Shown piece after piece: positions 28,097-55,366 of a stretch of DNA of 64,000 bases. The notes under the pieces are model-generated. The model saw nothing but the letters and a program-made list of their open reading frames with translations, ran no database searches and was not told where the DNA came from. Source of the stretch: Lentinus brumalis (Eukaryota; Basidiomycota; Agaricomycetes; Polyporales; Polyporaceae); contig MARA01000001.1 in the NCBI GenBank assembly GCA_001792895.1, forward strand, positions 2,666,001 through 2,730,000, given 5' to 3'. The position numbers were made by a program, and so were the translations under genes. How positions within the stretch are numbered: the stretch's first letter is position 1; each line of letters opens with the position of its first letter.

Positions 28097-28113
28097 ATAA
28101 CACCTGCGAACAT

Positions 28114-31100
28114 ATGGCAGAGAATAGTAAACCCAACGTCGGAATGCAGACATGTAGTGTTGGCATTAGTAGCACGGACAATCCTGTAATATCGTCATCT
28201 TCTCGCAACAGGAATTCATTCAAATTGCCCGTGACACTGTGGGTTTACGGAAGAAAAGTGCAGGTCGAAGCTCTGGTAGACTCAGGGGCCACGACATCTT
28301 TCATCAATAAATCAGTTGTCGAAACCTATCACCTGGGAACTCATAAGCTGGCAACCCCGTACGACGTGTATAACGCCGACGGGACCTCCAACAAAAGTGG
28401 ACAGATTACTCATGCTGTCCGGTCCTATGTCGAAATTGGATCTCATAAGTCAACTCACCAGCTGCTCGTAGCAGACTTAGGTAGTAAAGACATGATCCTA
28501 GGGTACACCTACTTACGCAGACATAACCCTGAAATCGACTGGGAACATGGGGAATGGAGGTTCACCAGGTGCCCTGAGAGCTGTGCCCCAAGAGCTCGTA
28601 AAAGAGGCAATGTGGCTGAAGAAGAAGCCGACGAGCTTCAGCTACCAAGGGTGGATCCCTTGATCACTCCACTGGACGAGTTAGGAGAGGAGTGTATCGA
28701 AAATCCGCATATCAACTGGATTTCGACAGAAGATCCAGACGACCACGAAGTAGCACAGTTGACCGCAGAGATTCTTGCAAAAGATCTCGAGGAGATTGAG
28801 GACGATGATACTCGCAACTGGAAGACTATAGTCCCAGAATATCTACACGAGTATGGCAACGTGTTCTCAAAGAAAGAATCAGAGAGGATGCCGGTGCGCA
28901 AACCGTATGACCACGGTATTGACTTCGAGGAGGGGGCCCCGCTTCCTCGACCGGCCAAACTATATCCAATGTCTCCAAAGGAACGCAATTCCTTGGACGA
29001 ATGGATCAATGAGGAAACCCGAAAGGGTTACATTCGAAAGTCAAAGAGCCCTCTAGCAGCACCTGTCTTCTTTGTCAAGAAGAGTGATGGAAGCCTGCGG
29101 TTGGTGGTAGACTACCGGAAGTTAAACGACATCACAGTGAAGAACCGTTACCCAATTCCCCGCATAGCGGACTTGGTTGACTCGCTCAGCCAGGCGTCAA
29201 TATTCACAAAAATTGACTTGCGCTGGGGATATAATAATGTTCGTATCCGAGAGGGTGACGAATGGAAAACGGCTTTCATCACACATCGCGGGCTGTTTGA
29301 AGCCAATGTGATGTACTTCGGTTTCTCCAATGCACCAGCCACCTTCCAGGCAATGATGAACGATATACTCGGTGATCTCATACGGGATGGACACGTTATT
29401 GTGTACCTTGATGACATATTGATCTTCACGACAATGTGCGTCAACACCGTCAAATCACTCAGGAGGTGCTCAAACGTCTACGAGATAATGATCTATTTGC
29501 AAAACCAGAGAAGTGCTTCTTTGAAAAAAGCAGCATCGAATATCTGGGCATGATCATCTCGAAGGGACAGATTTCGATGGACCCTAAGAAGGTTTCTGGA
29601 GTGACCGACTGGCCGCGACCCACTAAGGTCAAGCAAGTCCAAGCCTTCCTCGGCTTTGCCAACTTTTACAGGAGGTTTATCAAGGACTTTGCAAAGCATG
29701 CCAAGCCGCTCACCTCATTGACCAAGAAGGATCAACCATGGGTCTGGGGCGAGGAACAGGAACATGCGTTCGATAGCCTGAAAAAGGCCTTTACCTCAGC
29801 CCCTATTCTGCGCATCCCGGATGATGTAAACCCTTTCCGCCTTGAGACGGATGCCAGTGACTTTGCCACCGGAGCAGTCCTGTCTCAGCTGGACCCAACT
29901 GACAAGTTGTGGCATCCAGTAGCCTTTTATTCCAAGTCGCTCAATGTCCATGAACGGAACTATGAGATCTACGACAAAGAGATGCTTGCTATTATACGCG
30001 CTCTGGAGGAATATAGGCAGTACTTGGAGGGTCATCCGGAAAAGCTCGAGATATGGTCAGATCATCAGAACTTGACCTATTTCAAGACGGCCCAGAAGTT
30101 GACACGGAGACAGGCGAGATGGTCTCTGTACCTCACGCGTTTCAACTTCGTATTGCGCCACAAACCAGGCAAGACAATGCTCACTGCCGACCCTCTGTCC
30201 AGGAGGCCAGACCATGAAGAGGGGGTGGAATTCGATAACCGAGATCAAATCCTTCTCAAGCCTGAATTTTTCGCCATTCATGCTATCGATTCCTCTCATG
30301 AGTCGCCTATCAATGATGACATTCTCCTAAGAGAGGTCAAAGAAGCATTGCTACAGGACAACGTCACCAAGGACTATCAGCAACTGCTGAAGTCTGGACC
30401 ACGAGAGTTCAGCAAGTCCCTGGAGGATTGGAACTACGAGAATGGACTTTTGCTCTACCGTGGCAAAGTCTATATCCCAAAGAGTGACAACGATCACCTC
30501 CGTAGACGAGTAGTTCAGATGCACCATGATATACCTTCTGCTGGACATCCGGGGAGGTGGAAGACATATGAACTCGTCTCACGGAACTACTGGTGGCCGG
30601 GCATGTCAGTATTCACCAAGAAGTATGTCACAGGCTGCGACATCTGTCAACGGATGAAGAACCGTCCGCAACAGCCATATGGACCGCTCCAGCCCAACCC
30701 TGTCCCGGAAGGGCCATGGGAAATCATCACTATCGACCTTATCACTCAGCTACCAGAATCTTTTGGTTACACCGCCATCTGCGTGGTGGTAGACAGGCTC
30801 ACAAAGCGAGCACACTTCTTCCCCATCAAGAACGAGTTCTCTGCGAAAGATCTAGCGGAACTACTCTATGAGAGGATATGGCCGTTGCATGGCCTACCAC
30901 TTCAGATCATCTCCGACAGGGGTACACAATTCGCGGCAGCGCTATTCCAAGAATGGTGCAAGCTACTGGGGATAGAATCATCCATGTCCACCACATATCA
31001 CCCGCAGACGGATGGCCAGACCGAAAGGGTCAACCAGACACTGGAGCAATTCCTTCGCTGCTATGTTGATTACCAAAAGGCCAACTGGTCTAAGCTTCTC

Positions 31101-31785
31101 AGTGCAGCAGAGTTCGCGTATAATAATGCAGCTCACGAAGGAACCAAGGAGAGCCCATTCTTCTTGGAATACGGTCGACACCCACGGGCAGGTCCAACGC
31201 TTCGCAAAGAAGCAACTCCAACAAACCTCAGTGACATTGCATGGAGAAGACAACAAGCCCAGGAGCAAGCGAAGGCAGCTCTTGCTTTGGCAGCCGAGCG
31301 GATGAAGTGGTACTACGATCAGGGAGTCCAGAAGGTCCCCTTCAAAGTAGGCGACAAGGTTCTATTGGACCTACGTGACTATCAAACCACGGGTCGCAAG
31401 CTCAACGCTCGGTATGCAGGACCCTTTGAGATTGTTGAAAAACTTTCTCCAGTCACCTTCAGACTGAAGTGGCCTGCTAGGATGACTCGGATCCACCAGT
31501 CTTCCATGCCAGCAAGCTCATACCATATCATGACTCTCAGATCCCAGGCCAGAAACTGGCCCCACCGACCCTGTCATTATCGATGGGCATGAGGAGTTCG
31601 AGGTTGAAGCAATTCTCGACTCCAGGCGCTACCGCAGACAACTCCAATACCTAGTTCGGTGGAAAGGTTACGGCCCCGAGGATGATTCTTGGGAGCCGGT
31701 CAATAACCTCACGAACTCTCCCGAGCTCATCAAACAATTCCATGAGGCTCACCCGCATGCAATCCGCATGGCGGAGAGTTTCTAG
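28114..31785 (+). pseudogene. pol: Retrotransposon pol: PR-RT-RNaseH-IN-chromodomain (apparent frameshifts)
   Basis: Aspartic protease ALVDSGATTSFI near 28270; reverse transcriptase with VDYRKLND and the catalytic YLDDILIF at about 29401-29424; RNase H LETDASDFATGAVLSQ near 29842; integrase zinc-binding region H-H...GCDICQRMK, catalytic core with TIDLITQLP, ISDRGTQFAA and YHPQTDGQTERVN supplying the D-D-E; GPF module LNARYAGPFEIVEKL; chromodomain with YLVRWKGYGPEDDSWEPVNN, ending 31785. The frame shifts by -1 near 29430 and twice near 31500 and 31570, which detach the chromodomain. The chromodomain presumably targets integration to particular chromatin. With the breaks as read it cannot make a full protein; activity in trans or assembly error are alternatives. 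Confidence 0.9.
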
Positions 31786-37249: not shown

Positions 37250-39516
37250 ATGACCATGTCTGACGAAAAGCAGGCCGCTGTCGCTGTTCCGCCTGCACCT
37301 GCACTTGCACCGGCTGCGGATGTAGCCCGCTCGTCTCCTGCGCTGGACATCGAGCACGCCGGAGTCGCGGACGATCCGCGGGCATGGTCCAATGCACGCA
37401 AGGTATTTGTGCCACGTTGTCCTCGCACAGACACGAATCACTGACCGCGCGAGTAGCTGTCTGTAGTTGCCACTGTCTCCGCGGCTAGCATGATCGCCGG
37501 CCTCGGCGGGAACATCTACAATCGTGAGCAGATCATGCTGGGGTAGTCGCTGCCGCAGCGAACTCGTCTTGTGAGATTTACTTGGGTGTTCGCTCGGACA
37601 GCGGCAATATCCCAGATTGAGCAGCAGCTCCATGCGTCCAGCAGCTCTCTTGCCCTGAGCTTGTCGCTTTTCATCCTCATCCAAGGTGGTGTGCCGCTAC
37701 TGTGGAGTACATTGAGCGAATTTTGGGGACGCAAGGTATGCAAATCCATACCTCCGTAGGTTGCCTTCTAGCTGACCACGTGCTCAGAAAGTATATCTAG
37801 TTTCAACCGCTCTATGTGTGGTCGGTTGCATCGTTGCTGCTTTGGCAAAGACCATAAACGTCCTTATCGGCATGCGAAGCATCCAAGCTCTAGGGTAAGT
37901 CCACCTTCCTGGAGTTGGGAGGCCTGCCTAATGGTCTCTCAGATCAAGTGCAGTCATGGCGCTTGGAGCAGCCACACTCTCCGACATCTACGAGCCAGAG
38001 CAGCGCGGGACAATGATGGGCATCTACTACAGGCATGTCCAACATGATGGCGTCCTACGGCCACTTCGTTAGTCCGCTCACCTCATCCGCAGTGCGCCCC
38101 TCCTAGGACCCTCCCTCGGACCGCTCCTCGGCGGGGTGCTCACGCAAGCGTTCAACTGGCGTGCTACATTCTGGTTCCTCGCCATATTCGTTGGTCTGTG
38201 CTTCGTACTCTTCATCCCGTTCAAGGACACTTTCCGTCGCGAACGCAGCCTCACGTACCAAGCCGCGCTGAAGAGGCGGCGCGCACAACTCTCTGCGAAG
38301 GCTTCTGAGACGTCCAGCATCTCGCAAATTACCGCCGTATCTCGCGTGGTTTCCCCAACCGAAGGCGGCAAAAGCATTCCACCCCCAGCCCCAGCACCCG
38401 ACAATGCGATAGAGGCGCTCGAGCGTGACCGGGACCTCGAGAAGCAGCAGCAGCCCGCTCGTGTGGCCGAGCCCGAGCCAGAGCCCATGAAGGACATCAA
38501 GCTCTCGCTCTCAGACGTAAACCCCGCAAAGCCGATCATACATGTGTTGCGCCGGATGAATAACCTCGTCATCCTCGTGGCCTCAGGTATGCATCACTGC
38601 CGTCATCTCGTCCCGCTCGAAACTCATGGCTTGATGATTCGGTCAAAAGGATTGATCTTCGGCTTCAGCTATTGCATCTCGTACACCTGCTCGCGGACAC
38701 TGGCGAATCACTACGGCTACAACGCGCTCCAAATCGGCCTTGTGCTGCTCGCTTTCGGAGTTGGTGCGTGCACACCTGCGGCCTTCCGTGTTATGTATAT
38801 CCATGTCTGACTCCCGATGCGGGTTTGTAGGGTCGCTAGTCGGAAGCGTGTTCGGAGGACGGTACTCCGACCACGTCTTCCGGAAGCTCAGAGCACGTAA
38901 CGGCGGCACGAGCCAACCGGAGGTGTGTCCCTATCTCAATCACAACTCATTTCATCCCCTCTTCTCCGAACGTCCGGGCTTGCTCACGATACGATGACGG
39001 TTGTCGTGCTGGACAGATGCGATTGCAGAGCACGATGATCTTCATGCCCTTTCTCCCTGCATCCGTCATCGTCTACGGCTGGGTGTGCGAGCGCCACGCA
39101 AACGTCGCCGCCATCTGCGTCACGCTCTTCCTGAGCGGCCTCTTCTCTATGTACGTCCAGTGTTCCATTTTACGTTGCCGGTTCTCACACCACATCTCAT
39201 CCCACAACGTGCTAACGCTTTCATGTACACCTCCCACAGCGCAATCTATACAAGCACGCTCGCTTACATCGTCGACGCGAACAACGGCCGCTCCTCATCC
39301 GCCGTAGCCACGAACAGCGCCTTCCGCGGCAGCACAGCGTTCATCGCCGCCGAAGTCGCCGTCCCGCTGCAGACCGCCATCGGGGACGGGGGTATGTACT
39401 CGCTTTGGGCGGGGCTCATGCTCCTTTCCGAACTACTCATCCTCCTTGTGTGGTGGAAGGGTGGGGCATGGCGTGCGAAGTGGGAGCGGAAGGAGCAGGG
39501 TATCCCTCGGTCATGA
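37250..39516 (+). CDS. MFS transporter, DHA1 drug:H+ antiporter type (paralogue 1)
   Basis: Plasma-membrane proton-coupled exporter by family. Starts MTMSDEKQAAVA; the first exon ends WSNARK. The membrane domain follows in short exons: LSVVATVSAASMIAGL, SQIEQQLHASSSSLALSLSL, TLSEFWGRKKVYL (the loop 2-3 motif of MFS), IGMRSIQALG, SDIYEPEQRGTMMGIYY and APLLGPSLGPLLGG (motif C-like). A long charged loop between TM6 and TM7 (FRRERSLTYQAALKRRR to KDIKLSLSDVNP) is followed by the second six-helix half, ending KEQGIPRS at 39516. About ten introns of 45-90 nt. One intron (38033-38092) appears to use a GC donor. Substrate unknown; Qdr/Flr-like multidrug exporters are the closest match from memory. Confidence 0.85.
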
Positions 39517-40379: not shown

Positions 40380-42624
40380 ATGACCATGTCTGACAAAATG
40401 GCCGCTGCTGCGCCCGTACCTACACCAGCTGCCGGCATACCTGCGCTAGACATCGAACACGCCGGAGTAGCGGACGATCCGCGGGCATGGTCCAATGCAC
40501 GGAAGGTATTTCCACTACATCAGGTCTAATACCGAGACAATGAATGACTATCACGCATAGCTGTCTGTGGTTGCGACTGTCTCCGCGGCTAGCATGATCA
40601 ACGGCCTCGGGACGAACATCTACAATCGTAAGCAGCTCATGCCCGGCTCGTCGCTGCCACAGCTCGTCTCGTGAGATTGACTGTGTTCTCTCGGACAGCG
40701 GCAATATCCCAAATCGAGCAGGATCTCAACGCGTCCAGCAGCTCTCTTGCTCTGAGCCTGTCGCTATACATTCTTATCCAAGGTGGTGTACCACTACTGT
40801 GGAGCACATTGAGCGAATTCTGGGGACGCAAGGTACGCGAACTTCGTAGATTCGTTGCCTAATTGCTGACGACCGTGCGCGCAGAACGTTTACCTGGTTT
40901 CAGCAGCTCTAGGTGTGGTCGGTTGCATCGTTGCTGCTCTGGCACAGAACATAAACGTCCTTATCGGCATGCGATGCATTCAAGCCCTAGGGTACGTCCA
41001 CTGTCCAACTTGAAGACTCGAGGTCATGCATTCCTCAACGCCCTCCCAGATCGAGCGCAGTCACTGCGCTCGGCGCAGCCACACTATCCGACATCTACGA
41101 GCCCGAGCAGCGCGGGACGATGATGGGCATCTACTATAGGTATGTACACCGTCATGACCCACGGCCAGTTCAATAATTCGCTCACCTGGCTTGCAGTGCG
41201 CCCCTGCTCGGACCATCCCTCGGGCCACTCCTGGGTGGTGTGCTCACCGAGTCGTTCAGCTGGCGCGCAACATTCTGGTTCCTTGCCATCTTCATCGGTA
41301 TCTGCTTCCTGCCGTTCATCCCGTTCAAAGACACCTTCCGCCGCGAGCGCAGCCTCACGTACCAAGCCGCGCTGAAGAGGCGGCGCGCATATCTCTCTGC
41401 GAAGGCATCCGAGACGTCCAGCATCTCGCAAGTCACCGCTGTATCTCACGTTGTCTCCCCGACACCGGCCGGTGAAGTTCCTCCAGGTCCTGCTTCAGTA
41501 CAAAATCAAAGCAAGGATACAGTGCAAGTAGTAGAGCTCTCGTACGACCAGGACCTCGAGAAGCAGCAGGTTCAGCAATCCGCTCGTGTGGCCGAGCCTG
41601 AGGCAGCGCCCATGGAGGACATCAAGCTCTCGCTCGCAGACGTGAATCCCGCAAAGCCAATTATACATGTGCTGCGCCGGATGAACAACCTCGTCATCCT
41701 CGTGACCTCAGGCAGGCATTGGTGCTATGCCATTCTCGTGACGGAAATTCACTGGGGTCAACAGGATTGATCTTTGGATTCACCTATTGCGTCTCGTACA
41801 CCTGCTCGCGGACACTGGCGAATACCTACGGCTACAACGCACTGCAAATTGGCCTTGTGTTGCTCGCATTCGGAGTCGGTGCGTCTGCGTCTGCGTCATC
41901 CGGTGTGATCGACGTCTATCTATGACTCACTTGCAGCGTTGGTTTCGCAGGGTCGCTCGTCGGAAGCGTGTTCGGAGGACGGTACTCTGACCACGTCTTT
42001 CGGAAGCTCAGAGCACGTAATGGTGGCACGAGCCAGCCGGAGGTGTGTTTCCACTTCGATGCCAATAGTTTCAAATTGCTCATGCTGGACAGATGCGGTT
42101 GGAGAGCACGATGGTATTCATGCCCTTCTTCCCCGCGTCCGTGATCGCCTACGGCTGGGTGTGCGAGCGCCACGTAAACGTCGCCGCCATATGCGTCATG
42201 CTCTTCCTAAGCGGCCTCTTCTCGATGTGAGTGCACTCCCATCCGACGATATATCCGTGTCTCTCTTGTCCAGTGCACGGCCATTTGCATCAATCCCAGT
42301 CATCCTGCTCACACCGTCGACGCGTGCCCTTCCCGCGCACCCTACAGCTGCATCTACACCAGCACGCTATCCTACGTCGTCGACGCGAACAACGGCCGCT
42401 CATCGTCCGCTGTAGCAACGAACAGCGCCTTCCGCGGGGGTACCGCGTTCATCGCCGCCGAGGTGGCCGTTCCGCTGCAGAACGCCATCGGGGATGGGGG
42501 CATGTACTCGCTCTGGGCGGGACTCATCCTTCTGTCGGAGCTGCTCATCTTGCTTGTGTGGTGGAAGGGCGGGGCGTGGCGGGCGAAGTGGGAGCTAAAG
42601 GAGCAAGGTGTTCGTGGGCACTAG
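40380..42624 (+). CDS. MFS transporter, DHA1 drug:H+ antiporter type (paralogue 2)
   Basis: Tandem paralogue of the gene at 37250, with the same exon pattern and high identity. Starts MTMSDKMAAAAPVPTPAAG; the N-terminal tails differ but ALDIEHAGVADDPRAWSNAR is the same. Conserved parts include QGGVPLLWSTLSEFWGRK, SDIYEPEQRGTMMGIYY, the charged loop FRRERSLTYQAALKRRR and the C-terminal WWKGGAWRAKWELKEQGVRG, stop 42622-42624. The loop between the halves is longer than in paralogue 1 (extra VQNQSKDTVQVVELSYD). The intron at 41712-41764 appears to start GC, while the intron that has GC in paralogue 1 starts GT here (41140). Confidence 0.85.
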
Positions 42625-42929: not shown

Positions 42930-43410
42930 GTGTACAGAAGAACCCTTCAAAGCACATAACTCGGCCGAGAGACGACCGACAAGGAGCCACACTCATCGCC
43001 CATCTACCCAGCTTCGCTACCGCCCTGCGTACCTAAGAACGAGATACAAGAGAAACCTTCACAGAGCAAACAACTCCGCCGAGAGACAGATGACGAAGAG
43101 CCACCTTCGCCCCCCTCTACCCAGCCTCGCTGCCGCCTTGCTACTCTAACACAAGAGCCGGGGCCAATTACAATGTACAACGTGGAGAGCAGCATACAAG
43201 GAACACCTTCACAGGGCAGACAACTCCGCTGAGGAACAGACGACGAGCAGCCACACTCGCCGCCCATTCACCCAACATCGCCGTTGCCCTGCTACGAAGT
43301 CTCAGTCCAAGCCCAAATCCAAGTCCGAGTCCCCAGTCCCAGACACAACAGAAATGTCCAAGCAGCTCAGAGAAACCAAGTCCTACGCGTCCGAAGCTAG
43401 AAGCAGCTGA
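42930..43410 (-). repeat. Left arm of inverted repeat, three tandem units
   Basis: Read on the minus strand, three imperfect units of about 115-145 bp carry TAGCAGGGC...GGCGGCGAGTGTGGCT and CTCAGCGGAGTTG-like blocks. They match, in the same order, the plus-strand array at 50365-50870, including the preceding run of GGACTTGG-type repeats. The arms face each other across 7 kb. Confidence 0.8.
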
Positions 43411-43442: not shown

Positions 43443-44395
43443 TCCATTGCAAGTCCGGCCTGCATCTTCAGCACGCATGGAACCGTGCGTGGCGGTAGCT
43501 CCAGGAACGAATGGCGATCGTCCGGGTTCGCTGATGGTCGTCCGAGTGATACAGGACCACGAGCTTCCTATGCTTAGCTTCTCCTGGCCTCACGCCCGGG
43601 GCATTCTCGAATGTGCGCGGCCGCCCCGTTGATACCCTACCCTAAGCCATGGCCAGATCTCATTTTTTCGTCGTCGTCGTTGCCGATATCGTCGCCATGT
43701 TTTGAACCCGAATGTGATCGTCACAGGCGACGTCGCGCTGACACTCGGGTGGGGTCCACACTCACAATCGTAGTCTGCGATGCCCAAGTCAGCAAGCCGG
43801 CACCCGGACCGTCTGAATCTCTAGGGTCCCAAACCGGAACGCACCCTCGCACTTGCTCCACGCACATCCTGCTGCCCGGAACATCCAAGATGCCCGAGAC
43901 GTGCTGGGTCTTGACCTTCTTGACCGCTCGGTGGCCGTCCGCCGCCCACGTTGCCTTCCGCTTCGCCTTGCGCTCGCTATTCTCATCATGCTGCGCCTTC
44001 TTCGTCACTCGCTCATCTTCAATCGTGTCGCTCGCCTTGCGCTTCGCCGCTGCGTCGGCTTCTTGTGCGCCCGTCTTCGACCTCGTCTTCGCCCTTCCTG
44101 CGCCCCGATCTTCAGCCCGGCCCCCGATCGTCCTTCGGACTCTCGACCTCGTCTGCAGGGATGCACTGATCGTGACCGTCCACAGCGTCGGCGCTGTATA
44201 CCGGGTCCGCATCGTCTCCTTCTTCGTCTTCGCCGCCGACCACCGCTCGTACTCGTTCCTGACGCGCGTCTTCGCGACCTTGTCCGCTCTCTGCAAGGTG
44301 TTGGCCTTCCTGCTCTTTGTCCGCGCGTCCATCACGAAGTGCTGACCGTCCGGGGTCTTGAACGTGTAACGTGCGAACCTGTTATAAGACGACAT
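43443..44395 (-). pseudogene. Decayed copy of the GILK/KxVRW family (left module)
   Basis: Starts MSSYNRFARYTFKTPDG, matching TSSYNIYARYTFKTPEG of the gene at 49467, then a basic, helical middle and VKKVKTQHVSGILDVPG. Where the intact copy has GILK and KQVRW, this one has GILD and EQVRG. The first frame stops at 43721. Homology continues in another frame near 43450-43560 (VRPGEAKHRKLVVL, HSDDHQ) but with stops. I judge it a pseudogene. It lies beside the left inverted-repeat arm just as the intact gene lies beside the right arm. Confidence 0.65.
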
Positions 44396-44443: not shown

Positions 44444-44454
44444 CTGCGCAGCAG
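44444..44454 (-). promoter_or_regulatory. Shared upstream element CTGCTGCGCAG (left module)
   Basis: On the minus strand, 49 nt before the ATG at 44395. The same 11 bases stand 44 nt before the ATG at 49467 and 60 nt before the ATG at 45388, each followed by a C/T-rich stretch. Role inferred from conservation only. Confidence 0.45.
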
Positions 44455-44933: not shown

Positions 44934-45391
44934 ATGACTATGACCACCACGTCCTTTGACCGCGCGTTGGCCTTTCCGAATGAAAGATTTCCAAGTTACT
45001 ACTCATCCGCCAAGTCTGAGGACACTCGGAGTCGGATCCACGACCCTGGTCTCGAGCTCCACGCACAGTGCTCTCCAGTACGATCAGCTGAGTTATACCC
45101 TGCTTTGGCTCTTCCGTGGTACTTTGGGCATCACGAGGCTATGCTTGACAATTTTGTGAGCTGTTTCGATCAAGATTTTGAACGAACAGAACCCCTCACC
45201 ACAAGGTCAACTATGGGTCCGTCGGTCGTGAACCCAATCAATTCCGCCTCCGACGCATAAGTAATCCAGAAGGGCTTGCTCGAAGCCTGCCTATTACTCG
45301 TCCTGCCCTTGACACACTGCTGCGCAGTTTTCCTCCCCTACCTCGCATCATTCAATTACTCTCTACGAGTCCACGCTCACCTCACCCATGA
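44934..45391 (+). CDS. Hypothetical 135-aa protein (doubtful)
   Basis: ATG at 44934 (MTMTTTSFDRALAF). The unspliced frame gives 108 aa. A 50-nt intron with GTGAGC donor and CACAAG acceptor (45156-45205) is phase 0 and leads into a longer open second exon (VNYGSVGREPNQFRLRR...LLRSFPPLPRIIQLL), stopping at 45391 and overlapping the next ATG (45388) by 4 nt. No domain recognised. Its second exon covers the shared CTGCTGCGCAG element, so it could instead be upstream, non-coding sequence of the next gene. Confidence 0.3.
45317..45327 (+). promoter_or_regulatory. Shared upstream element CTGCTGCGCAG (middle module)
   Basis: Lies 60 nt upstream of the ATG at 45388 and is followed by a pyrimidine-rich tract (TTTTCCTCCCCTACC). 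See the left-module entry. Confidence 0.45.
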
Positions 45392-46381
45392 ATGATTCTC
45401 AGAGTATTGTGGGCGGTCTTATCTGCTTTGACGAAGAAACCCAAGAATACAAGCGCAACGACAACTATCGTCCGATCTTCTACGCTCCTTACCCCTTCGT
45501 CGCCTCACCCATCTCTTCTCTTGCGCCTCCCTCCGATCTCGCCCCATCCTCTGCTAACGCGGACACTTCAGGACGCGAGCAGCGCAAGGCCGCCTCCCTA
45601 CTCGACCTCGGCAGCGACCTGTGCACGTGGCAGGCTTCCGAGGGCTTTTCCACTCTGAGCAAGGAGGACGGATACCAGGCTGAAGCGTCTGCACCAGCGC
45701 TCTCAGCGGCGTACATAGTGAGTTCCTTGCCGTTGTTCTTCACCGCGCGCACACGCTTATCGTACCATTTGCTGTCAGCCCACGAGCTGGCTCTCTGAGC
45801 AAGACTGGTTCGACGATGCGCCGACGGACGACGCTAACCTGTCTAGTAGTTGCAGGTCTGAATCTGAACCTGTCTCGTCCCCGATCAAGAACACTGGGAA
45901 TGCATATGAGGGAGACCGCAGTGCGTGCCCGGGCCCCGAGTCGGTCCACCTCACCGAGTCGGCCTACCTCGAGGAGCGTATCCAAGTGGCCGAGAGGTTA
46001 GAGGCAGCGGCAAGGAGTGCGAGCTTGCGGAGCATGCGCTCTCTCGGGGTGAACGCATCTTTCCGTCATGACGTTCGTCGCACTGATGGCACTGTCCAGG
46101 ATGTGGAGACGTTCAAGTCTTCCTCACACGCACAGATGGGGCCTCTTTCGATTCTCAAAAGGTCAAGAACGAATGAGTTGCAGCCCGAGCCTTCCGCGAA
46201 GCGGGTGCGGTGGTATGACTCAACCGGCGAGCATGCGAAGACTCGCGCTGACAAATCTGCACGGCTGTACTCCCCCCGTCCGCCACAGAGGTGGGACCAA
46301 CGACTGGCGCACGGTGTAGCGAGGATCAAGGCCGCGTTCGCTGACGTCGTCATCAAGAACCAGTCTTCGAGTGCAATGTAG
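45388..46381 (+). CDS. Putative PP1-docking protein with SILK and RVxF motifs, 310 aa
   Basis: ATG at 45388; one phase-0 intron (45718-45778, 61 nt); stop 46379-46381. The N-terminus (MNDSQSIVGGLICFDEETQE) is acidic and Ser/Pro-rich with no known fold. The C-terminal third is basic. Residues 234-237 read SILK and residues 251-255 KRVRW, 13 residues apart. From established knowledge, [GS]IL[KR] and [RK]x(0,1)[VI]x[FW], in this order, are docking sites on the PP1 catalytic subunit, as in inhibitor-2. A role as PP1 regulator or targeting subunit is inferred. Related through this region, the upstream element and the 3' repeat to the modules at 43443-44395 and 49467-50361. Confidence 0.75.
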
Positions 46382-46611
46382 GAGGTCTTTCGTGGTGACC
46401 TGTGAGTGCCGATGCATGGTCCATCTTCATTTGCGATGCTTACTGCCCCCCGTCACAGGGATGGGTTCGGGTTTTGCTTGTTTGCTTGTATTTGTGCATG
46501 AGTGCTACTGATTAGGTGACTGGGGATTCTTAGACATGGACCTTGTATCCGTGTCGCGCTCTTGGACTAGGACTGATGCGCTGGTGTATATTCTAATGTG
46601 GCTCGTTTGTC

Positions 46612-46720
46612 GTAGAGTAGCAGGGCGACGCGTTGGGACAGGGCGGCGAGTGTGGCTCCTCGTCGCCTGACTCTCAGCGAGAGCTGGTTGCCCTGCGACA
46701 CGAACCTACTTTTCTTCTTG
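46612..46720 (+). repeat. Single diverged GTAGCAGGGCG unit downstream of the middle module
   Basis: GTAGAGTAGCAGGGCGACG...GGCGGCGAGTGTGGCTCC with CTCAGC matches one unit of the arrays at 42930-43410 and 50365-50870. All three family members therefore share this 3' flank. Confidence 0.65.
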
Positions 46721-47149
46721 GTGAGTTCCTCATGCTTCTTCGGGCTGCGACCTTCACTGACTGTTACGGTCCACCTAGGCTTGCTTTCTCCGTGCTTTGT
46801 ATCACGCTTCGTGACGTCCGTAATCTATACCCAGGTCCATGGCTGTGATGTGCGTGCTGGCTTGTCTGCTTTCTCGCAGTCCTTCTCTGCTCGACTCTTC
46901 GTATCAACGGTCGGGATCCTTGACTGCCGCTTGACCCTGGCTCCCTGTTCGCTTCCCTGCTCCCCGCGGCCGCATGCCGGACAGCTTTGCAGAGGCTGAC
47001 GTTGTCCAAACCGTCATGTCAGCCTCCTTCATGGCAGCACAAAAGCTCGCTCGGCGGGCCAGAATCTTCTCATTGTTCTCTCCTTCGCACCACTTGCGTC
47101 CACGCAAACACCGACGTCGATCTCTACACTCTCTACAACGCCGTACATC
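46721..47149. other. Intergenic, no gene seen
   Basis: Upstream region of the small secreted protein. Open frames are present on both strands but without recognisable content. Confidence 0.35.
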
Positions 47150-47623
47150 ATGATGGTCCCGTTCCGCTACGTGCTCGCGATCGCGCTCCTCCACCTCACC
47201 GCCACCGTCTGCGCCGCGCCCGCCTCGTCCCCTGAATCCTCCGTGTCCAACACAGTCTCGCCATTGACCAAGGACGCCGGGGCGCACATCGGCACGGGCG
47301 CGAACATCCCGTCAGAAGGCAAACAGGTTCTGAAGGATGTGGACGACGTGCACGTGAGTAGTCCCTTCATCTCGTTCCATGCCCCGTATATGCACCCGAC
47401 TGTCTGTTAGCCGACACCGTGTGTGCATCAGGCTGACCCTTGATTTCTCTCCTGCTTCATACAGCAACGGCGACGCGGCATAGCCGGACCAGTCAGTGTC
47501 GGACAGGGCAACGCGGACGATTCGCACCCGCCGGTGCCCGTTCAGAACTACAAGAACGACGTGGCGCGGCTGCCGGTGTTTGAGAACATGCAAGCGCCGG
47601 AGAGTCAGGGCGGCGTAGAGTGA
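47150..47623 (+). CDS. Small secreted protein, 120 aa
   Basis: ATG at 47150. MMVPFRYVLAIALLHLTATV and the following CAAPA form a clear signal peptide with a likely cleavage after CAA. One phase-0 intron (47354-47464, 111 nt) separates DDVH from QRRRGIAGPVSVG. The mature protein is about 97 aa, acidic and polar, with no cysteine after the signal. QRRR is a plausible Kex2-type processing site that would release the C-terminal half. No family recognised; an effector-like or peptide-precursor role is possible but unproven. Stop 47621-47623. Confidence 0.7.
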
Positions 47624-47971
47624 ATGGTGCTGAGCGGTGAGAAGTGGGGTGTGTATGTCGTCGCGAGTGCACCGTGCGAACGAGGAGCGGGCTGCAGCTG
47701 GTGGTGTATGCGGGGATGTTCTGTCCTATGGGGTGACTGGTTATGCAATCATGGTTTCTTTCTGTTTGCAACACGGTGTTCGATATGCCTGTCGTAACAC
47801 GATGGCTGCATGGCACAGAAACGGCAGCGACGACATTGGGAGAAGCCCATTGGGTGCGCGGCTGACTGCGGGCACCAGGTATCCCTTGTTCCGAGTTGAT
47901 CTGTGAACGTACACCTAATCATACAACATATAAAGATGAAGGGGAAGCAACACGACAACAATGAACCTAAC
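47624..47971. other. Convergent intergenic region
   Basis: Lies between the 3' ends of the secreted-protein gene and SPC25; presumably both 3' UTRs. No other feature seen. Confidence 0.4.
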
Positions 47972-48898
47972 TCAACGCCCTTGTTCTACCAACTCGCAAA
48001 ACGCTTGTCGCATGCGTCGCATGAAAGCATAGATGTCCCGCGACGCGTTGAGCTCGTCAAGCAGGAGGGGTAGTATCGGGAGGTAAGGCGTCGTCGTCGG
48101 CACTGCATAGACAGCCCACCATCCATATATGTTGTAGCAGCGCATGTCAAGTATGGACGCACCTTTATATGCCCGGCTGGATACATCCAGCACGAAAGTG
48201 AACTCGGCTTTGAGGTCGTCTGGGTCGATGTGCGAGAAACGGACGAGGATCTTGTCCTTGTCTATGCCCTCTATTGCAAACTTCAAACGGTCCTCGCAAG
48301 CCGCGACTTCGGGGTGGGTGCGCGAAGCATGAGCGTTCAGGATGCTCTCCTCGCGTTTCCGTTCTAGGACGCGGTATGTTCACGTATGGGGCAAGCAAGG
48401 AAGACGCATATAGAAAACATACCTCGCATGAGATTGGTCACATTCCTCCGGTGCAGCTCAATCTCAGCGTCGAGCGACGCACACTTCTCCTTGATGGACG
48501 CAAGCTGCCGCCGGAAAGCAGCGACACTCGCCTCGCTCTCCTTCTTCTCCTCCTGCTCCTTGTCCAGCACTCCGCGTAGCTCTTTCCTCAGCCCATCGAG
48601 TGTACGCAACGCATGAATGGGCGCACGCACCTGCAATGAGCTCGATCTCCTTCAGCTTGCACTGGTTTGTCTCCGCCTCGACCTGCTGCGTCTTCTCCGT
48701 GATCTTCTTCTTCTCGCCGCTGAAGTTGTTCTTCCTGTTCGTAATCTCCGTAACGGCGCGTTGGGTGTAGTTGGAAACGGCCTTGATGAAGTTGCGCGTC
48801 GAGACTTCGTACGCCTCGAGCCGTAGGTCGATTTGCGGGTTCTGCTGGTTAAGGACGGCAGGTAGGTCGAGCTTCGGTACGCGCAGTACGTTGGCCAT
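47972..48898 (-). CDS. SPC25: Kinetochore protein Spc25 (NDC80 complex)
   Basis: Subunit of the NDC80 complex that links kinetochores to spindle microtubules. Starts MANVLRVPKLDLP at 48898. Three introns by frame: phase 1 after KEIELIA, phase 1 after VTNLMR (GTATGT donor), and phase 1 after SSRAYK. Joined, it has an N-terminal and central coiled coil (EKKKITEKTQQVEAETNQ, KEQEEKKESEASVAAFRRQ) and the C-terminal globular domain FTFVLDVSSRAYK followed by LPILPLLLDELNASRDIY and FMRRMRQAF, the hallmark of the Spc25 family. Ends CELVEQGR, stop 47972-47974. Length, about 240 aa, fits fungal Spc25. Intact and probably essential, so it marks a conserved anchor inside an otherwise repeat-rich island. 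Confidence 0.92.
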
Positions 48899-49120
48899 CT
48901 CAACAATAGCAGGGACGTTACTTCAGGAGCAGGCAGAGGTGTCGTTGGAGTGGGGTTCGGAGTGCGTTGGAAAGCTGGACGGAGTCCGGCTTACCCTGGC
49001 TTACCGCGACGAGCGCGACTGTGTCTGTCGTGCACGTGACCGTTCGCTATTTAACCATGCCATCGGCGCTTGACACTCGGCCTGAACACTTTCACTTCCG
49101 ACGTGCTTCCGACCGTTGTT

Positions 49121-49187
49121 TAATTGATGTTCATACTATCCATTCGAGCAAGCAGACGTCTCGAATGGATAGTATGAACATCAATTA
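49121..49187. repeat. Perfect 28-bp inverted repeat (hairpin)
   Basis: Arms 49121-49148 and 49160-49187 are exact reverse complements, with an 11-nt loop CAAGCAGACGT. It starts TAATTGATG and lies between the divergent SPC25 and 49467 genes. Confidence 0.92.
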
Positions 49188-49197
49188 CAAGACACGA

Positions 49198-49255
49198 CGA
49201 GACGCGACCAGGCTTGAGCCACCACAGATTTGAGTCTGTCGTGGGTCGCGTCTCG
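49198..49255. repeat. Second, nested hairpin
   Basis: CGAGACGCGACC (49198-49209) pairs with GGTCGCGTCTCG (49244-49255); inside, CCACAGA pairs with TCTGTCGTGG with one bulge. It starts 11 bp after the perfect hairpin. Terminal structure of a small mobile element or a regulatory structure are possible. Confidence 0.7.
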
Positions 49256-49411
49256 CAACCAGTCTCAAATGAAAGCGGGAGCGGATACTTCACATGATAC
49301 CACTACACAACATCCGTGCGGATAGGACAGGAGTCTACCCGCTCCGCTATCGAGTATAAAGGTGCGTCGCGAGTCTTTCACTTGTTCTATCATCCCCATT
49401 TCTACAAACTA

Positions 49412-49422
49412 CTGCTGCGCAG
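49412..49422 (+). promoter_or_regulatory. Shared upstream element CTGCTGCGCAG (right module)
   Basis: Lies 44 nt before the ATG at 49467, followed by a C/T-rich tract with CACATA repeats very like the left module. Confidence 0.45.
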
Positions 49423-49466
49423 TATACCCCCCTATACCTCACATATACCTCACATATAGCTCACAA

Positions 49467-50361
49467 ATGACCTCTATCATAATGACTTCAACATCTTCTT
49501 ACAACATCTACGCGCGTTATACGTTCAAGACCCCGGAAGGCTGGGCCTTCTCGGATGACAAGGCGGTGGTCAGACAGGAGTACAAGCGGTGGCAAGCGGC
49601 GGAGCGCAGACGGCATCTGAAGGCTCAGAACGTAGCGAAGACGACGACACGGGCACGGGCACGCTCTGTGGGCGCAGAAGACGTGGACGAGGCGGCGAAG
49701 CGCAAGGCGTTCCTCAAAGTCATTGAAGACGAGCGGGCGGCGAAGTTGAAGGCGCGTATCCTCGAGAATCGAAGGCGCAAGATGAAGCGGAAGGCGACGT
49801 GCGCGGTAGACGGCGATCGAGCAGTGAAGAAGGCGAAGACAAATCACGTTGCTGGCATCCTGAAGGTCGACGGCGGTGCGACGGGTACGAAGCAGGTGCG
49901 GTGGTGCGGGTCAGTACAGGAGCCTAGGGAGACGGTCCGGGTGCGTATTCGTCGTTCTGCCGGCCCTTTGAGACTTGCTGACCTCGAATGTGAAGCCTAA
50001 GATTGTGAGGGTCTCATGCCCGGACTCGGACCCTACCACTCGGAGTCAAAACGCGACTACGACACCTGCGCCGACGACGATGCAGATCTGGCCGTGGCCC
50101 AAGGTACCGATGGGACTGTCGCTCACGTTCGAGGACGTACCAGAAGTGAGACCGGGAGAGGCGAAGCCCAGGAAGGCGATGGTTATGCGTCACTCGGACG
50201 ACCACCAGTGGAACCGGAAGATCGTCATTCCTCCATGGACCTACCGTCACGCCCAGTACCACAAGTTGTGGAAGATGCACGTCGGACTCGAGCGACGGAT
50301 CAAGTTTAGTGCAGAGTTGGGGGCACCGATGGCGCGGTTGCTTCTGGCGTCGTGCTTGTAG
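49467..50361 (+). CDS. Putative PP1-docking basic protein with GILK and KQVRW motifs, 277 aa
   Basis: ATG at 49467 (MTSIIMTSTSSYNIYARYTF). One phase-0 intron (49941-50001, 61 nt) joins ETVR to IVRVSCPDSD; stop at 50361. The first 60 residues carry the family motif YARYTFKTPEG; residues 70-125 are strongly basic and helical with nuclear-localisation-like clusters (RRRKMKRK, KKAK). Residues 130-133 read GILK and 142-146 KQVRW, matching the SILK and RVxF docking motifs for protein phosphatase 1. Exon 2 has a second conserved block (VRPGEAKPRKAMVMRHSDDH, WTYRHAQYH), also seen in the decayed left copy. A nuclear PP1 regulator is inferred from motifs only. Confidence 0.75.
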
Positions 50362-50364
50362 GAC

Positions 50365-50870
50365 TTGCTTTCTCTGGCGGCTTGGACATTGCTGGTGTGT
50401 CTAGGACTGGGGACTCGGACTTGGATCTGGGCTTGGACTGGGACTTGTGGTAGCAGGGCGACGGCGATGCTGGGTGGATGGACGGCGAGTGTGGCTGCTC
50501 GTCGTCTGTTCCTCAGCGGAGTTGTCTGCCTTGCGAGGGGGTTCCTTGTATAGTGCTCTCCACTTCGGTTGTACATTATAATTGGCGTCGGTCTTGTAGA
50601 GTAGCAGGGCGGCAGCGAGGCTGGGTAGATGGGCGGCGAAGGTGGCTCTTCGTCATCTGTCTCCCGGCGGAGTTGTTTGCTCTGTGAAAGGTTCCCTTGT
50701 ATGCGCTCTTGAATTGTAGAGTATGTATCAGGGCGGCAGCGAAGATTGGTAGGTGGGCGGTGAGTGTGGCTCCTTGTCGCTCGTTTCTCAGCCGAGTTGT
50801 GTGTCCTGTGAAGGTCTGCGCTTGTATCGTGTTCGGTGCCCACGTTGGATGTATGTCGGGAATGTGTAGT
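50365..50870 (+). repeat. Right arm of inverted repeat, three tandem units
   Basis: Starts directly after the stop codon of the preceding gene with GGACTTGG-type repeats, then three units near 50452, 50602 and 50716 with GTAGCAGGGCG, GGCGGCGA and GTGTGGCT blocks. Reverse complement of the array at 42930-43410. Confidence 0.8.
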
Positions 50871-51119: not shown

Positions 51120-52880
51120 CTACCACAATGCACCTGCACGAGAGCACTGGGACGACGGCTCACGGCAGTACTCCGGCAGGGTCATTTCGGGGATAGCATC
51201 GATGCGCTCGACCTTCACGGTCGGAACGTACTTCGAAATCCGAAGGATTTCGCCTTCGTCAATGACGATGTTCGGCGCCATCTGCAGGACGAGCGTGTCG
51301 AGGTAGGCGTAGTTCCCCGTCGCGAGGCATTCGCACGCCTTGCCCAGCTTCAACTCTGGCCGTCTGAGGCCGGACTCCCGGGTATTCTGTAACCCGATCC
51401 CATGGCAGATAACGAGCCTCAACGTCTTGAGGTTGCGCGATGCAAACGACGGGTGCGTCGTGCTCGGGAGGATCCACAGGTTCGGCTCGAGGGTGTAGGG
51501 GAGGACATACACGAGGGTCTCGACCGCGGGGAGCCCGACCATCACGTCGCGCATGGCGATCGCGACGCGATGCGAAAACGACATGTAGGCAGATCCGTGC
51601 CTGATGTCGAGATGCTGCCACGGAATCGTCATGGTGGGGCTATCCGTATCCTGGATCGCACGGCTCGCGAGCATGCCGACGAGCCACAGCTCGCGCACGC
51701 TTGCTAGGTCCGACTTGTCTTCGAGCATCGCCCTGACCGCTGTGTAGTAGGGGCCGTCGATGTCGTGTGGCTGGTTGCGCCGGACGTGAAAGGTCCCGCT
51801 AGGCCCGATGGACGTCAGGGATGCGCTATCCCAGTCGTCATATGTTCTGCGCCAGGGTGTGGGGTTGAAGAAGTCCCGTGAGACAGGCGGATGCTCGAGA
51901 TGAACGATACGCAGAGTGTGGGGATGCGGGGAATACTTTGGGATGATGCTTCTGGCGACGTCTTCTTTGACCCCCGGATTGAACAGCTGGAACGCCATGT
52001 CTCGATTGTGCGGGAGGGCTGCGAGGTAGACGGCGTCGTCATCAGGATTTTCCAGCGTGACGCGTTGTAGGCGAGGGAGATGGACCGTAAGAGTGGTTGT
52101 CGCGCGTTCCATGATGCTCTCCCGTGAGTTCAGAAGGACGAGGGATACCAGCATCGGGCAACGGCTGAGGAAGGTGAGCAGCGTCTTGTCAAACCGCGGT
52201 ACTCGGACGTTGATCAGCGCAAGATGTGTAAGAGAAGCGAAGTGGTTCCTGGGAAGGAAGCAGACCTTGCTCAGCGTGAGGTGACGCAGCTGCGATGCCT
52301 GAGGGAGTGAGAGGAGCGAGCCCTTCGGAGGTAACCACGCCACACCAGAGCTTGCGATTGAGAGGAATCGGAGTTTCGGTGCAGGCACGGTGAGAAGCGG
52401 CACCCATAAGTCCATGTTCTGGTTTCCTAGACGGGTTATATGGAGCTCTTGAATGCGGTGCGCCTCTGCGACGTACCAGTCGCGAACAACTTGGGGCGTG
52501 GGATGTACGAAGGAGATGTACACGTTGAGCGGGACATCCTGATTCAGAGCATGCATTTTGTCAGCATCGAAGGACGCTTCCTCGCTGATAATAATGGTCT
52601 TGACGACCAGGGACAGAGTCTGAACCACGTCGCGGAGCCGGCGGCATGTTTGCGAGATGGGTTTGAGAGCGGAGGTATCGACGACCGAGCAGTGCCAGTG
52701 TGGCTTGAGATCTGCTCTCCGCAGGCTAAGAGGTGGAGCAAATCTCTGGAGGATCAGTGCGAGGATCTCTGTTGGTAACTTCAGCAAATCCGGTGTGACG
52801 TTTGTTTGGGTGACTGCGTCGGGGTGGGTGTGGGTACCACCGGCTTCTTCGAGGTCCGCCAACATAGCTGCGTCAAGCAA
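51120..52880 (-). CDS. F-box/LRR-like protein, 586 aa
   Basis: Single exon from ATG 52880 (an alternative Met lies at MLADLEEAGG, five codons in) to the stop at 51120. The F-box is near residues 30-80: LLKLPTEILALILQRF followed by LKPISQTCRRLRDV. The rest has Leu-rich stretches typical of the C-terminal repeats in basidiomycete F-box proteins (LRFLSIASSGVAWL, LRHLTLSKVCFLP, LTHLALINVRVP, LVSLVLLNSRES, LKTLRLVICHGI, YLDTLVLQMAPN). By family it would recruit a substrate to an SCF ubiquitin ligase through Skp1. Substrate unknown. Such genes are highly expanded in Agaricomycetes. Confidence 0.8.
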   Translation of the reverse strand: MLDAAMLADLEEAGGTHTHPDAVTQTNVTPDLLKLPTEILALILQRFAPPLSLRRADLKPHWHCSVVDTSALKPISQTCRRLRDVVQTLSLVVKTIIISEEASFDADKMHALNQDVPLNVYISFVHPTPQVVRDWYVAEAHRIQELHITRLGNQNMDLWVPLLTVPAPKLRFLSIASSGVAWLPPKGSLLSLPQASQLRHLTLSKVCFLPRNHFASLTHLALINVRVPRFDKTLLTFLSRCPMLVSLVLLNSRESIMERATTTLTVHLPRLQRVTLENPDDDAVYLAALPHNRDMAFQLFNPGVKEDVARSIIPKYSPHPHTLRIVHLEHPPVSRDFFNPTPWRRTYDDWDSASLTSIGPSGTFHVRRNQPHDIDGPYYTAVRAMLEDKSDLASVRELWLVGMLASRAIQDTDSPTMTIPWQHLDIRHGSAYMSFSHRVAIAMRDVMVGLPAVETLVYVLPYTLEPNLWILPSTTHPSFASRNLKTLRLVICHGIGLQNTRESGLRRPELKLGKACECLATGNYAYLDTLVLQMAPNIVIDEGEILRISKYVPTVKVERIDAIPEMTLPEYCREPSSQCSRAGALW

Positions 52881-53455: not shown

Positions 53456-55366
53456 ATGTCGGCTCATGGTCAGGGCAGATCAAAGGATCGTGGACTTGTC
53501 AGGGATCGATTCGCCCTGGCCGTACAGGAATTAGAACTGCTTATCGACACCGACACAGATCACCTTATCAGGTAAGCCTTCTCTTGAACCATACACACCC
53601 GGTCGACGGCTGACGACGGCTGATCTAGCGATGAAGAGGTTTGCTCCTCAGTCGTTTCACGTAGAATCATTACTGACGATCGAATGCAGATTGACGGCGT
53701 CCGCAAGCTCCTACACAGGAGCAATCAACTCTTGACCAGGCTGTCCAATGCCCGCCGAGGCGCGAATCGTCTTCCGGCCGAACTGCTACATGAAATCTTC
53801 CTGCAGAGTCTCCGCCCTGTCATTCTCTCCCGTTACTGTGCGAAAGGGCCGTCCTGGTACGATCGTCATTACAGCGACGAAGTAGGTTGGCCCCACGAGC
53901 ACAAGCGTGTATGCGACGTCCTGGCCCTTGCGCACGTCTGCAAACGCTGGCGTAGCGTGGCTCTTGCCTTCCCCGAGCTCTGGCAATCTGTCAGCATCTT
54001 CAGCCGAGGAGCAGGATCGACATTCCTCACCCGTGCTGAAGACAAGCCTCTCAGCCTCTTAGCCATCGCGAAGGGGCCGTCGGAGGCCGGATGGCTTAAC
54101 GACATGTGCGCGGAGGGCGCACCTACGATGCGGCAGCTATTGTGGGTCTCTCCTAGCCAAGGACTGGGTCAGCATCGAGGATACGCCATGTCTGAGCTGG
54201 ACATCAAGGCGCCCAACCTCGAGCGACTCTGCATGGCCCGAGGAGTGGGAGATCACGAGTTGTACCGTTCCCGCAGCATCTTCCGCGGAGACACGAGCAA
54301 AGTGAAGTACCTGGCCATCATTGAACTCCACTGGGTGCCACGCAATCGCTTTCCTGCACTCACTCACCTCGTCTTGACCGAGCGCATTCATCCATACGAG
54401 CTGGGTACCTTCCTTGAGCGTTGCCCGAACCTACAGACCTTGGTATGCCGGACGACGAGGCCCTGGGAGCAGATCGAACCCGCGCGCACCATCGCCCTTC
54501 CTCATCTCCGCCGCATCTCCCTGGAATGTCCCGACTTCCCCGACAACTATCTCTTCAACTTCCTTGCGAAGCTGGAGTTTGATCGCTCTCATGCCGCTAT
54601 CCGGGTGTCGTTCAATGGCTATGCCGCGGACACGTTTGGACACCAGCGTAATGTTCTTGTCGCGCCGCCGCATCCACAGGACATGTCCGGTCTAGAACTT
54701 CAGCCTGACGCGCAATACACCCATCTTTGCGTCAAGGCAATCGGACCCCCTCGTGGTTCCTCCTCGTTCACGATGTTCGCTACGAGCGCGACAGGCGGTG
54801 TCTGTCTCAGGGGCAACTCGGCCATACAGCACATGGTGCAATACAGCTTCCCGCTCCAGCACATCACAGAGCTGTGGGTTGACGGCCTGACGAAAGAGGT
54901 CCCCGAGGTGCTGATGTTGTGGCGGCGCGCTCTGCCTGCCTTACGCACGCTCGTCGTCGTGCGCCGCCCGCCGCCTCTCACAGAGGTCTTCCCCAACGTG
55001 CCCGCTATGTATTTCGGAGGACCTCAAAAGTCCCAGAAAGCGGGTCCGACCATCATGGGTCTGGCACACGCGCGGGAGATGGGGATGCGCGTGCTGGATG
55101 ACAGGCGATGGGAGAGCGAGGACGCCGTCTTTGCGCACCTTAAGACCATCTTCGGCATACCCTTCATGCCTGGGACGCACCCCGTGCGCATGTTCGTTTC
55201 GGACGGCCAGGGGACAATCGAGGAGGCGGAGCTGGATCCGTGGATGACCGTGACTGGGCTGACGCTGCAGGAGGCTGAAGGAGAGGGTGTGGAAGTGCCG
55301 ACTGTCATGCTGATGCCGGAGGTTTGTACGGAGGATTCTGACCTCACCGCTTGGGAGACGTGGTAA
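53456..55366 (+). CDS. F-box protein
   Basis: Exon 1 starts MSAHGQGRSKDRGLVRDRFA at 53456; an intron (53572-53664, GTAAGC donor, CACGTAG acceptor, phase 2) joins LIR to IITDDRMQID, giving a coiled-coil-like LLHRSNQLLTRLSN before the F-box (NRLPAELLHEIFLQSLRP ... LAHVCKRWRSVALAFPELWQ). This helix-plus-F-box layout is typical of basidiomycete F-box families. The C-terminal part has Leu-rich segments (HLRRISLECPDF, ITELWVDGLTKEV, LPALRTLVVV). Stop at 55366; about 600 aa. If the intron is not used, translation could start at the internal ATG 53684. A decayed relative follows. Confidence 0.82.

What the first reader, a model, noticed from the sequence alone, without database searches (positions are those of the whole stretch)
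45388..50361. Local family of small basic proteins with paired SILK and RVxF motifs: candidate PP1 regulators
Seen: SILK...KRVRW (residues 234-237 and 251-255) in the protein at 45388 and GILK...KQVRW (130-133 and 142-146) in the one at 49467; the rest of the two proteins hardly matches. Known: [GS]IL[KR] N-terminal to [RK]x(0,1)[VI]x[FW] is the docking pair of protein phosphatase 1 partners such as inhibitor-2. Inference: a fungal, locally expanded PP1-docking family, not obviously named in any family I know.
Basis: partly seen in the sequence, partly recalled or inferred. Interest (0 to 1): 0.75.

Follow-up and report, generated by a model that had tools for sequence, protein, structure and literature searches.

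The report
Fungal orphan gene cluster, PP1-like motifs
A mushroom-relative fungus carries three neighbouring, fast-changing orphan genes copied from one ancestor, two intact and one decayed, and the coding stretch best preserved between the two intact ones looks like the docking motif for the cell's main phosphatase PP1, so they may be new nuclear PP1 partners, though binding is untested.

Summary
The motifs are real and lie where stated: SILK-13-KRVRW in gene A (45388-46381), GILK-8-KQVRW in gene B (49467-50361). They are the only two such pairs in 1380 six-frame ORFs; residue shuffles average 0.15, with 2 or more in 4 of 300. A, B and C share a promoter-proximal element and a ~100-bp 3' element that searches of the 53.4-Mb genome found only beside these genes: the local family is genuine. 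The best DNA match between A's and B's motif-bearing exons is exactly the KxVRW codons (17 of 18 bases; 3 of 2000 codon shuffles). VRW is kept in 3 of 3 A and 3 of 3 B-type proteins, lost in 2 of 2 C-type. SILK varies: SFLK in Lentinus tigrinus, absent from the Cerioporus B model. Best reading: lineage-specific, probably disordered nuclear proteins docking PP1 through RVxF, helped by SILK, laid out like inhibitor-3/Ypi1 but not members of it. A bipartite nuclear signal overlaps A's motifs. PP1 binding is not shown.

The parts
45388..46381 (+). Gene A: exon 1 45388-45717, intron 45718-45778, exon 2 45779-46381; 310 aa; the only copy found in the genome
   Evidence: splice search, translation; own-genome searches
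46148..46159 (+). SILK motif of A (residues 234-237)
46199..46213 (+). KRVRW (RVxF-type) motif of A (residues 251-255)
46157..46210 (+). bipartite-NLS-like stretch of A (residues 237-254) overlapping both motifs
   Evidence: pattern scan
49467..50361 (+). Gene B: exon 1 49467-49940, intron 49941-49995, exon 2 49996-50361; 279 aa
   Evidence: same length as P0003
49854..49865 (+). GILK motif of B (residues 130-133)
49890..49904 (+). KQVRW (RVxF-type) motif of B (residues 142-146)
49785..49838 (+). bipartite-NLS-like stretch of B (residues 107-124), upstream of and separate from the motifs
   Evidence: also matched in C, P0003, P0004, P0005 (5 of 5 B/C proteins)
43477..44395 (-). Gene C: decayed paralogue of B; open exon 1 44395-43721, exon-2 remnant about 43731-43477 with two in-frame stops
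43844..43894 (-). degenerate motif region of C, GILD...EQVRG
   Evidence: alignment; position counted
45316..45348 (+). 5' element of A (CTGCTGCGCAG core 71 bases before ATG)
   Evidence: A/B flank alignment reached by 0 of 2000 shuffles
49411..49444 (+). 5' element of B (core 55 bases before ATG)
44444..44454 (-). 5' element core of C; the core occurs 3 times in the window, once before each gene
46585..46698 (+). 3' element of A, one unit
50450..50834 (+). 3' element of B, three units
42940..43295 (-). 3' element of C, three units

Best explanation
A, B and C are an old tandem family of orphan genes. A and B encode probably disordered nuclear proteins whose KxVRW segment docks into the RVxF groove of the fungal PP1 catalytic subunit (or its relative PPZ), with the upstream [SG]ILK adding a second, dispensable contact in the SILK pocket. 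A nuclear signal carries them, and PP1 with them, into the nucleus; the remaining, fast-changing parts would choose substrates or site. C is a decayed copy. Shown here: the motifs, the common origin, the codon-level match at KxVRW, the conservation in few homologues. Inferred: binding, localisation, disorder, and any effect on PP1.
For: Both motifs in the order SILK then RVxF. Common origin from flanks that the genome searches found only at these three genes. The best DNA match between A exon 2 and B exon 1 is exactly the KxVRW codons. RVRW kept in 3 of 3 A proteins; VRWCxSVQEPRETVR kept in the Cerioporus B homologue, which is 47-56% identical to B. In B the VRW lies outside the nuclear signal, so a signal alone does not explain it. 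Spacing is workable: inhibitor-3 binds PP1 with 27-SLTIK-31 and 40-KVEW-43, an 8-residue linker like B's, part of which is its nuclear signal (passages of PMC10066265). Yeast Ypi1 uses RHNVRW and its W53A mutant loses Glc7 and Ppz1 (passage of PMC6506691). The genome carries inhibitor-2 and Ypi1 by profile and two PF16891 phosphatases that I read as PP1 and PPZ. Motif regions of both AlphaFold models are nearly all below pLDDT 50 (P0003 127-244; P0002 244-314, with 241-243 above), as expected of disordered docking segments, though two-row alignments give weak models anyway.
Against: SILK is not constant: SFLK in L. tigrinus, missing in the Cerioporus B model, GILD in C and P0005. The Cerioporus B sequence HEVRW fails the strict [RK]x(0,1)[VI]{P}[FW] pattern; C and its L. 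brumalis counterpart P0005 have lost the W. RVxF-like strings are common: 18% and 40% of shuffles of A and B hold one. Only three A and three B-type proteins are available, and in A the residues flanking the motif are conserved too. No homology to a known PP1 regulator was found.
Confidence: 0.5

Rival explanations
1. The conserved basic strings are nuclear localisation signals, and the match to PP1 motifs is a by-product: in A, KRSR-x10-KRVR is a bipartite signal read by importin alpha; PP1 is not involved.
For: In A the bipartite pattern covers residues 237-254 and is present at the motif in 3 of 3 A proteins; B has a separate one at 107-124. One A versus Cerioporus-B alignment (reached by 1 of 1000 shuffles) lines A's basic pair up with B's nuclear signal rather than with GILK, which would make the two ILK motifs non-homologous.
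Against: A nuclear signal needs no invariant W after the basic pair, yet W is kept in 3 of 3 A and 3 of 3 B-type proteins (not in the two C-type); in B the VRW is outside the signal. The two readings do not exclude each other: inhibitor-3's linker serves both (PMC10066265 passage).
Confidence: 0.25
2. KxVRWCxSxxxP is a docking or structural motif for some other partner, specific to this family; the PP1 resemblance is chance.
For: Conservation runs beyond RVxF: profile comparison pairs RVRWCxSxxxPxxT of A with B (hhalign E 0.0012 for the single comparison but probability only 19%); to my recollection PP1 docking needs neither the C nor the P. SILK varies.
Against: SILK upstream and RVxF with a basic residue and an aromatic fit the PP1 consensus in both window genes; chance 0.03-0.06% per protein.
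Confidence: 0.2
3. The genes are non-functional relics and the shared bits are only remnants of the duplication.
For: C is decayed (two in-frame stops in the exon-2 remnant). Homologues were found in few species.
Against: A and B are open with GT-AG splice sites; relatives at 43-56% identity are annotated as complete proteins (A: P0001, P0002; B: P0004 at 47%); B against C, one of them decayed, gives dN 0.38 against dS 0.82, below neutrality.
Confidence: 0.05

Closest known systems
Inhibitor-3 / Ypi1 (PPP1R11; Pfam PF07491)
   Same: SILK-type motif, short linker that holds a nuclear signal, then K/R-V-x-W; linker of 8 residues as in B (PMC10066265 passages); Ypi1 uses VRW (PMC6506691 passage)
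   Different: No PF07491 match, no CCC motif after the RVxF, no significant alignment with this genome's own Ypi1 frame (A 723, B 272 of 1000 shuffles as good; that frame includes an apparent intron read through). The genome has its Ypi1 elsewhere (C1:332764).
Inhibitor-2 / Glc8 (Pfam PF04979)
   Same: [SG]ILK plus an RVxF-type motif ending in W (SQKW in inhibitor-2, PMC10066265 passage); this genome's inhibitor-2 exon reads GILK
   Different: No PF04979 match; the genome's own inhibitor-2 lies on another contig. Whether A or B hold an inhibitory helix was not tested.
Rif1 (SILK then RVxF at the N-terminus in fungi)
   Same: SILK N-terminal to RVxF (PMC3410773 passages)
   Different: Rif1 has a HEAT region of about 1000 aa; A and B are about 300 aa without any Pfam domain (B through P0003).

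Membership tests
   A, B, P0001, P0002, P0003 met; P0004 and P0005 not; C has EQVRG
SILK/RVxF class of PP1-interacting proteins | [GS]IL[KR] N-terminal to RVxF | tested here: met
   A, B, P0001, P0003 met; P0002 (SFLK), P0004, P0005 not
SILK/RVxF class of PP1-interacting proteins | both motifs conserved among homologues | tested here: not met
   both motifs in 4 of the 7 proteins scanned: A, B and P0001-P0005; C, not in that scan, also lacks them. P0005 is the L. brumalis counterpart of C; P0004 may be a model error
SILK/RVxF class of PP1-interacting proteins | motifs in a disordered, accessible region | tested here: inconclusive
   pLDDT mostly below 50 around the motifs in models of P0003 and P0002, but the alignments have two rows
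SILK/RVxF class of PP1-interacting proteins | direct binding to PP1 | not testable with these tools
   no complex prediction or assay available
Inhibitor-3 / Ypi1 | PF07491 profile match | tested here: not met
   A and P0001-P0005 scanned, 0 families at E up to 10; window B itself was represented by P0003. The genome's own Ypi1 is found by the same profile
Inhibitor-3 / Ypi1 | CCC motif downstream of RVxF | tested here: not met
   no three consecutive cysteines in the sequences of A and P0003 or B exons
Inhibitor-2 / Glc8 | PF04979 profile match | tested here: not met
   the genome's own inhibitor-2 is found by the same profile
Local paralogous family A/B/C | shared ancestry | tested here: met
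   3' element matches only at the three genes in the searched 53.4 Mb; 5' element; 17 of 18 bases at KxVRW for A/B (A/C shows nothing there)

The most novel reading that the evidence does not exclude
A clade-restricted, rapidly diverging nuclear gene family in which protein sequence has been almost wholly replaced between paralogues while the PP1 docking site is kept: young PP1 targeting subunits that evolve around a fixed docking peptide, possibly under conflict or for a lineage-specific nuclear or mitotic role (a kinetochore gene, SPC25, sits next to B).
Probability: 0.15. Interest if true: 0.6.

Novelty: new member of a known kind. Interest (0 to 1): 0.38.

Why it matters
PP1 specificity depends on many short-motif partners, and those outside model yeasts are, to my knowledge, largely uncharted. 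If A and B bind PP1, this cluster shows orphan genes becoming or remaining phosphatase subunits with little but a docking peptide conserved, and offers a natural series (intact A, intact B, decayed C; species with and without the SILK half) to test what the SILK contact adds to RVxF.

Tried and rejected
Reading A and B as inhibitor-2 or inhibitor-3 members: no profile match. B as a Ypi1 duplicate: the alignment puts SLRLR over GILK and VVW over VRW but is not significant, 272 of 1000 shuffles. PDB sequence profiles: one hit each, to ribosomal proteins, E 3.1 and 1.1. Fold search was not run because both models have mean pLDDT under 50. Rfam at E up to 1: six matches, all within 49104-49201, to miRNA families and below their gathering scores; they reflect a hairpin and I do not credit them. 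A region search for the motif module found only P0001 among 17 candidates. Literature: searches for SILK with RVxF and inhibitor-2 (25 papers, 15 listed), SILK motif/RVxF/RRP1B (43 papers, 20 listed), RVxF with basidiomycete and PP1 (2 papers), SILK motif with RVxF motif and orphan (1 paper), RVxF with Polyporales (0 papers) and SILK motif with fungal terms (20 papers, 10 listed) listed no title about such a family. I saw passages only ('find') of PMC10066265, PMC3792071, PMC3410773, PMC6506691 and PMC8786283, and of the rest the listings alone.
Full report
What is there. The window lies in a 53.4-Mb genome. The protein matches of genes A and B are from Polyporus arcularius, Lentinus brumalis, Lentinus tigrinus and Cerioporus squamosus, five proteins in all. 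Gene A (45388-46381, one 61-base intron) and gene B (49467-50361, one 55-base intron) have GT-AG splice sites. B's spliced length, 279 aa, equals that of P. arcularius P0003.

More than chance? In 100,000 composition shuffles each, the pair with a linker of 4-40 arises in 0.03% (A) and 0.06% (B). In the whole window the pair occurs twice in 1380 six-frame ORFs of 30 or more residues, against a shuffle mean of 0.15, with 2 or more in 4 of 300 shuffles. The RVxF half alone is cheap: 18% and 40% of shuffles of A and B contain one. Since A and B prove to be related, the two pairs are not independent events.

A third member. B has one paralogue found in the genome, C, at 43.5-44.4 kb on the minus strand (55% identity, E 2.5e-18). 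Its exon 1 is open, but the exon-2 remnant holds two in-frame stops, and the motif region reads GILD...EQVRG. The L. brumalis protein P0005 is its counterpart and reads GILD...EQVCG. No second copy of A was found.

Common origin. At protein level A and B are barely alignable (97 of 1000 shuffles as good; over the nine A-family by B-family comparisons the count runs from 1 to 246 of 1000). Non-coding DNA settles it. Each gene is followed by one to three units of a ~100-bp element (74-78% identity between A's unit and those of B and C); two searches of the whole genome found this element only beside these three genes (5 and 4 matches, all on contig C1 inside the cluster; the tool calls such counts lower bounds). 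Each gene is preceded by an 11-base core, CTGCTGCGCAG, 55-71 bases before the ATG, found 3 times in the 64-kb window, once per gene; it was not sought in the rest of the genome. The flank match is reached by 0 of 2000 shuffles for A/B, 18 of 2000 for A/C and 0 of 2000 for B/C. Within coding DNA the best match between A exon 2 and B exon 1 is 17 of 18 bases exactly over the KxVRW codons (3 of 2000 codon shuffles as good; A against C shows nothing, 1040 of 2000). The codons of ILK differ at all three third positions, so SILK and GILK may be old homologues or separate gains; one alignment of A with the Cerioporus B protein (1 of 1000 shuffles) sets A's KRSR...KR against B's nuclear signal instead.

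Conservation. A family (A, P0001, P0002): R252, V253, R254, W255 are invariant in 3 of 3; SILK is SILK, SILK, SFLK. Flanking residues (KRSRT, SPRPPQRWDQ) are invariant too, so the motif is part of a conserved C-terminal block, not an island. B-type proteins (B, P0003 at 94%, P0004): VRW is kept in 3 of 3, the basic residue two before V in 2 of 3 (HEVRW in Cerioporus), GILK in 2 of 3; the two C-type rows (C, P0005) keep neither motif. P0001 and P0004 both list a longest contig of 362,847 bases, so A and B are probably neighbours in Cerioporus as well.

Known background (passages only). Inhibitor-3 binds PP1 with SLTIK 27-31 and KVEW 40-43; residues of the linker are its nuclear signal; mutating its SILK, which is non-canonical, hardly changes affinity (13.1 against 15.7 nM), whereas mutating its RVxF weakens binding to 3460 nM (PMC10066265). 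So B's 8-residue linker has a solved precedent, overlap with a nuclear signal is no argument against docking, and a drifting SILK beside a fixed RVxF is what a PP1 ligand may show. SILK stands before RVxF in unicellular Rif1 proteins and after it in animal ones (PMC3410773). In LAP1B the motif REVRF binds while a SILK, lying after it, does not (PMC3792071). Yeast Ypi1 docks by RHNVRW, and W53A abolishes it (PMC6506691). This genome has inhibitor-2 and Ypi1 by profile and two PF16891 phosphatases that I read as PP1 and PPZ from their exons.

Verdict. A and B most likely dock PP1 by KxVRW with an optional SILK contact, as nuclear proteins of unknown target (confidence 0.5). They do not match the inhibitor-2 or inhibitor-3 profiles. 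If binding is confirmed they are a new, clade-restricted family of a known kind; the clade restriction rests on word-based searches of limited reach. No title listed concerns such a family; the library lacks most subscription papers.

Noticed in passing
window 47972-48898 (-): Kinetochore gene SPC25 lies between A and B: PF08234, E 1.2e-20 on the frame 47972-48286; the upstream frame 48464-48898 has no match over a cut-off and is joined to it by reading only.
   Followed up: partly
window 49121-49187: 67-base inverted repeat (hairpin) between SPC25 and B, 87% complementary, no other copy found in the genome; it draws sub-threshold miRNA matches.
   Followed up: partly
window 50450-50834 and 42940-43295: 3' units of about 100 bp, three after B and three after C, one after A (46585-46698), found nowhere else by the genome searches; function unknown, no Rfam match at E up to 1.
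   Followed up: partly
window 42001-42609 and 38881-39501: A second local duplication, 78% identical over 532 bases and 94% over 48.
   Followed up: no
window 28042-31589 (+): Retrotransposon pol, Ty3-like by domain order: protease and reverse transcriptase in one open frame, RNase H and integrase in an overlapping one.
   Followed up: no
window 51120-52880 (-) and 53624-55363 (+): Two divergently oriented F-box-like/LRR-like frames downstream of B; the first matches F-box-like only below the curated cut-off.
   Followed up: no
window 942-2153 (-): Histidine kinase domains HisKA and HATPase_c.
   Followed up: no
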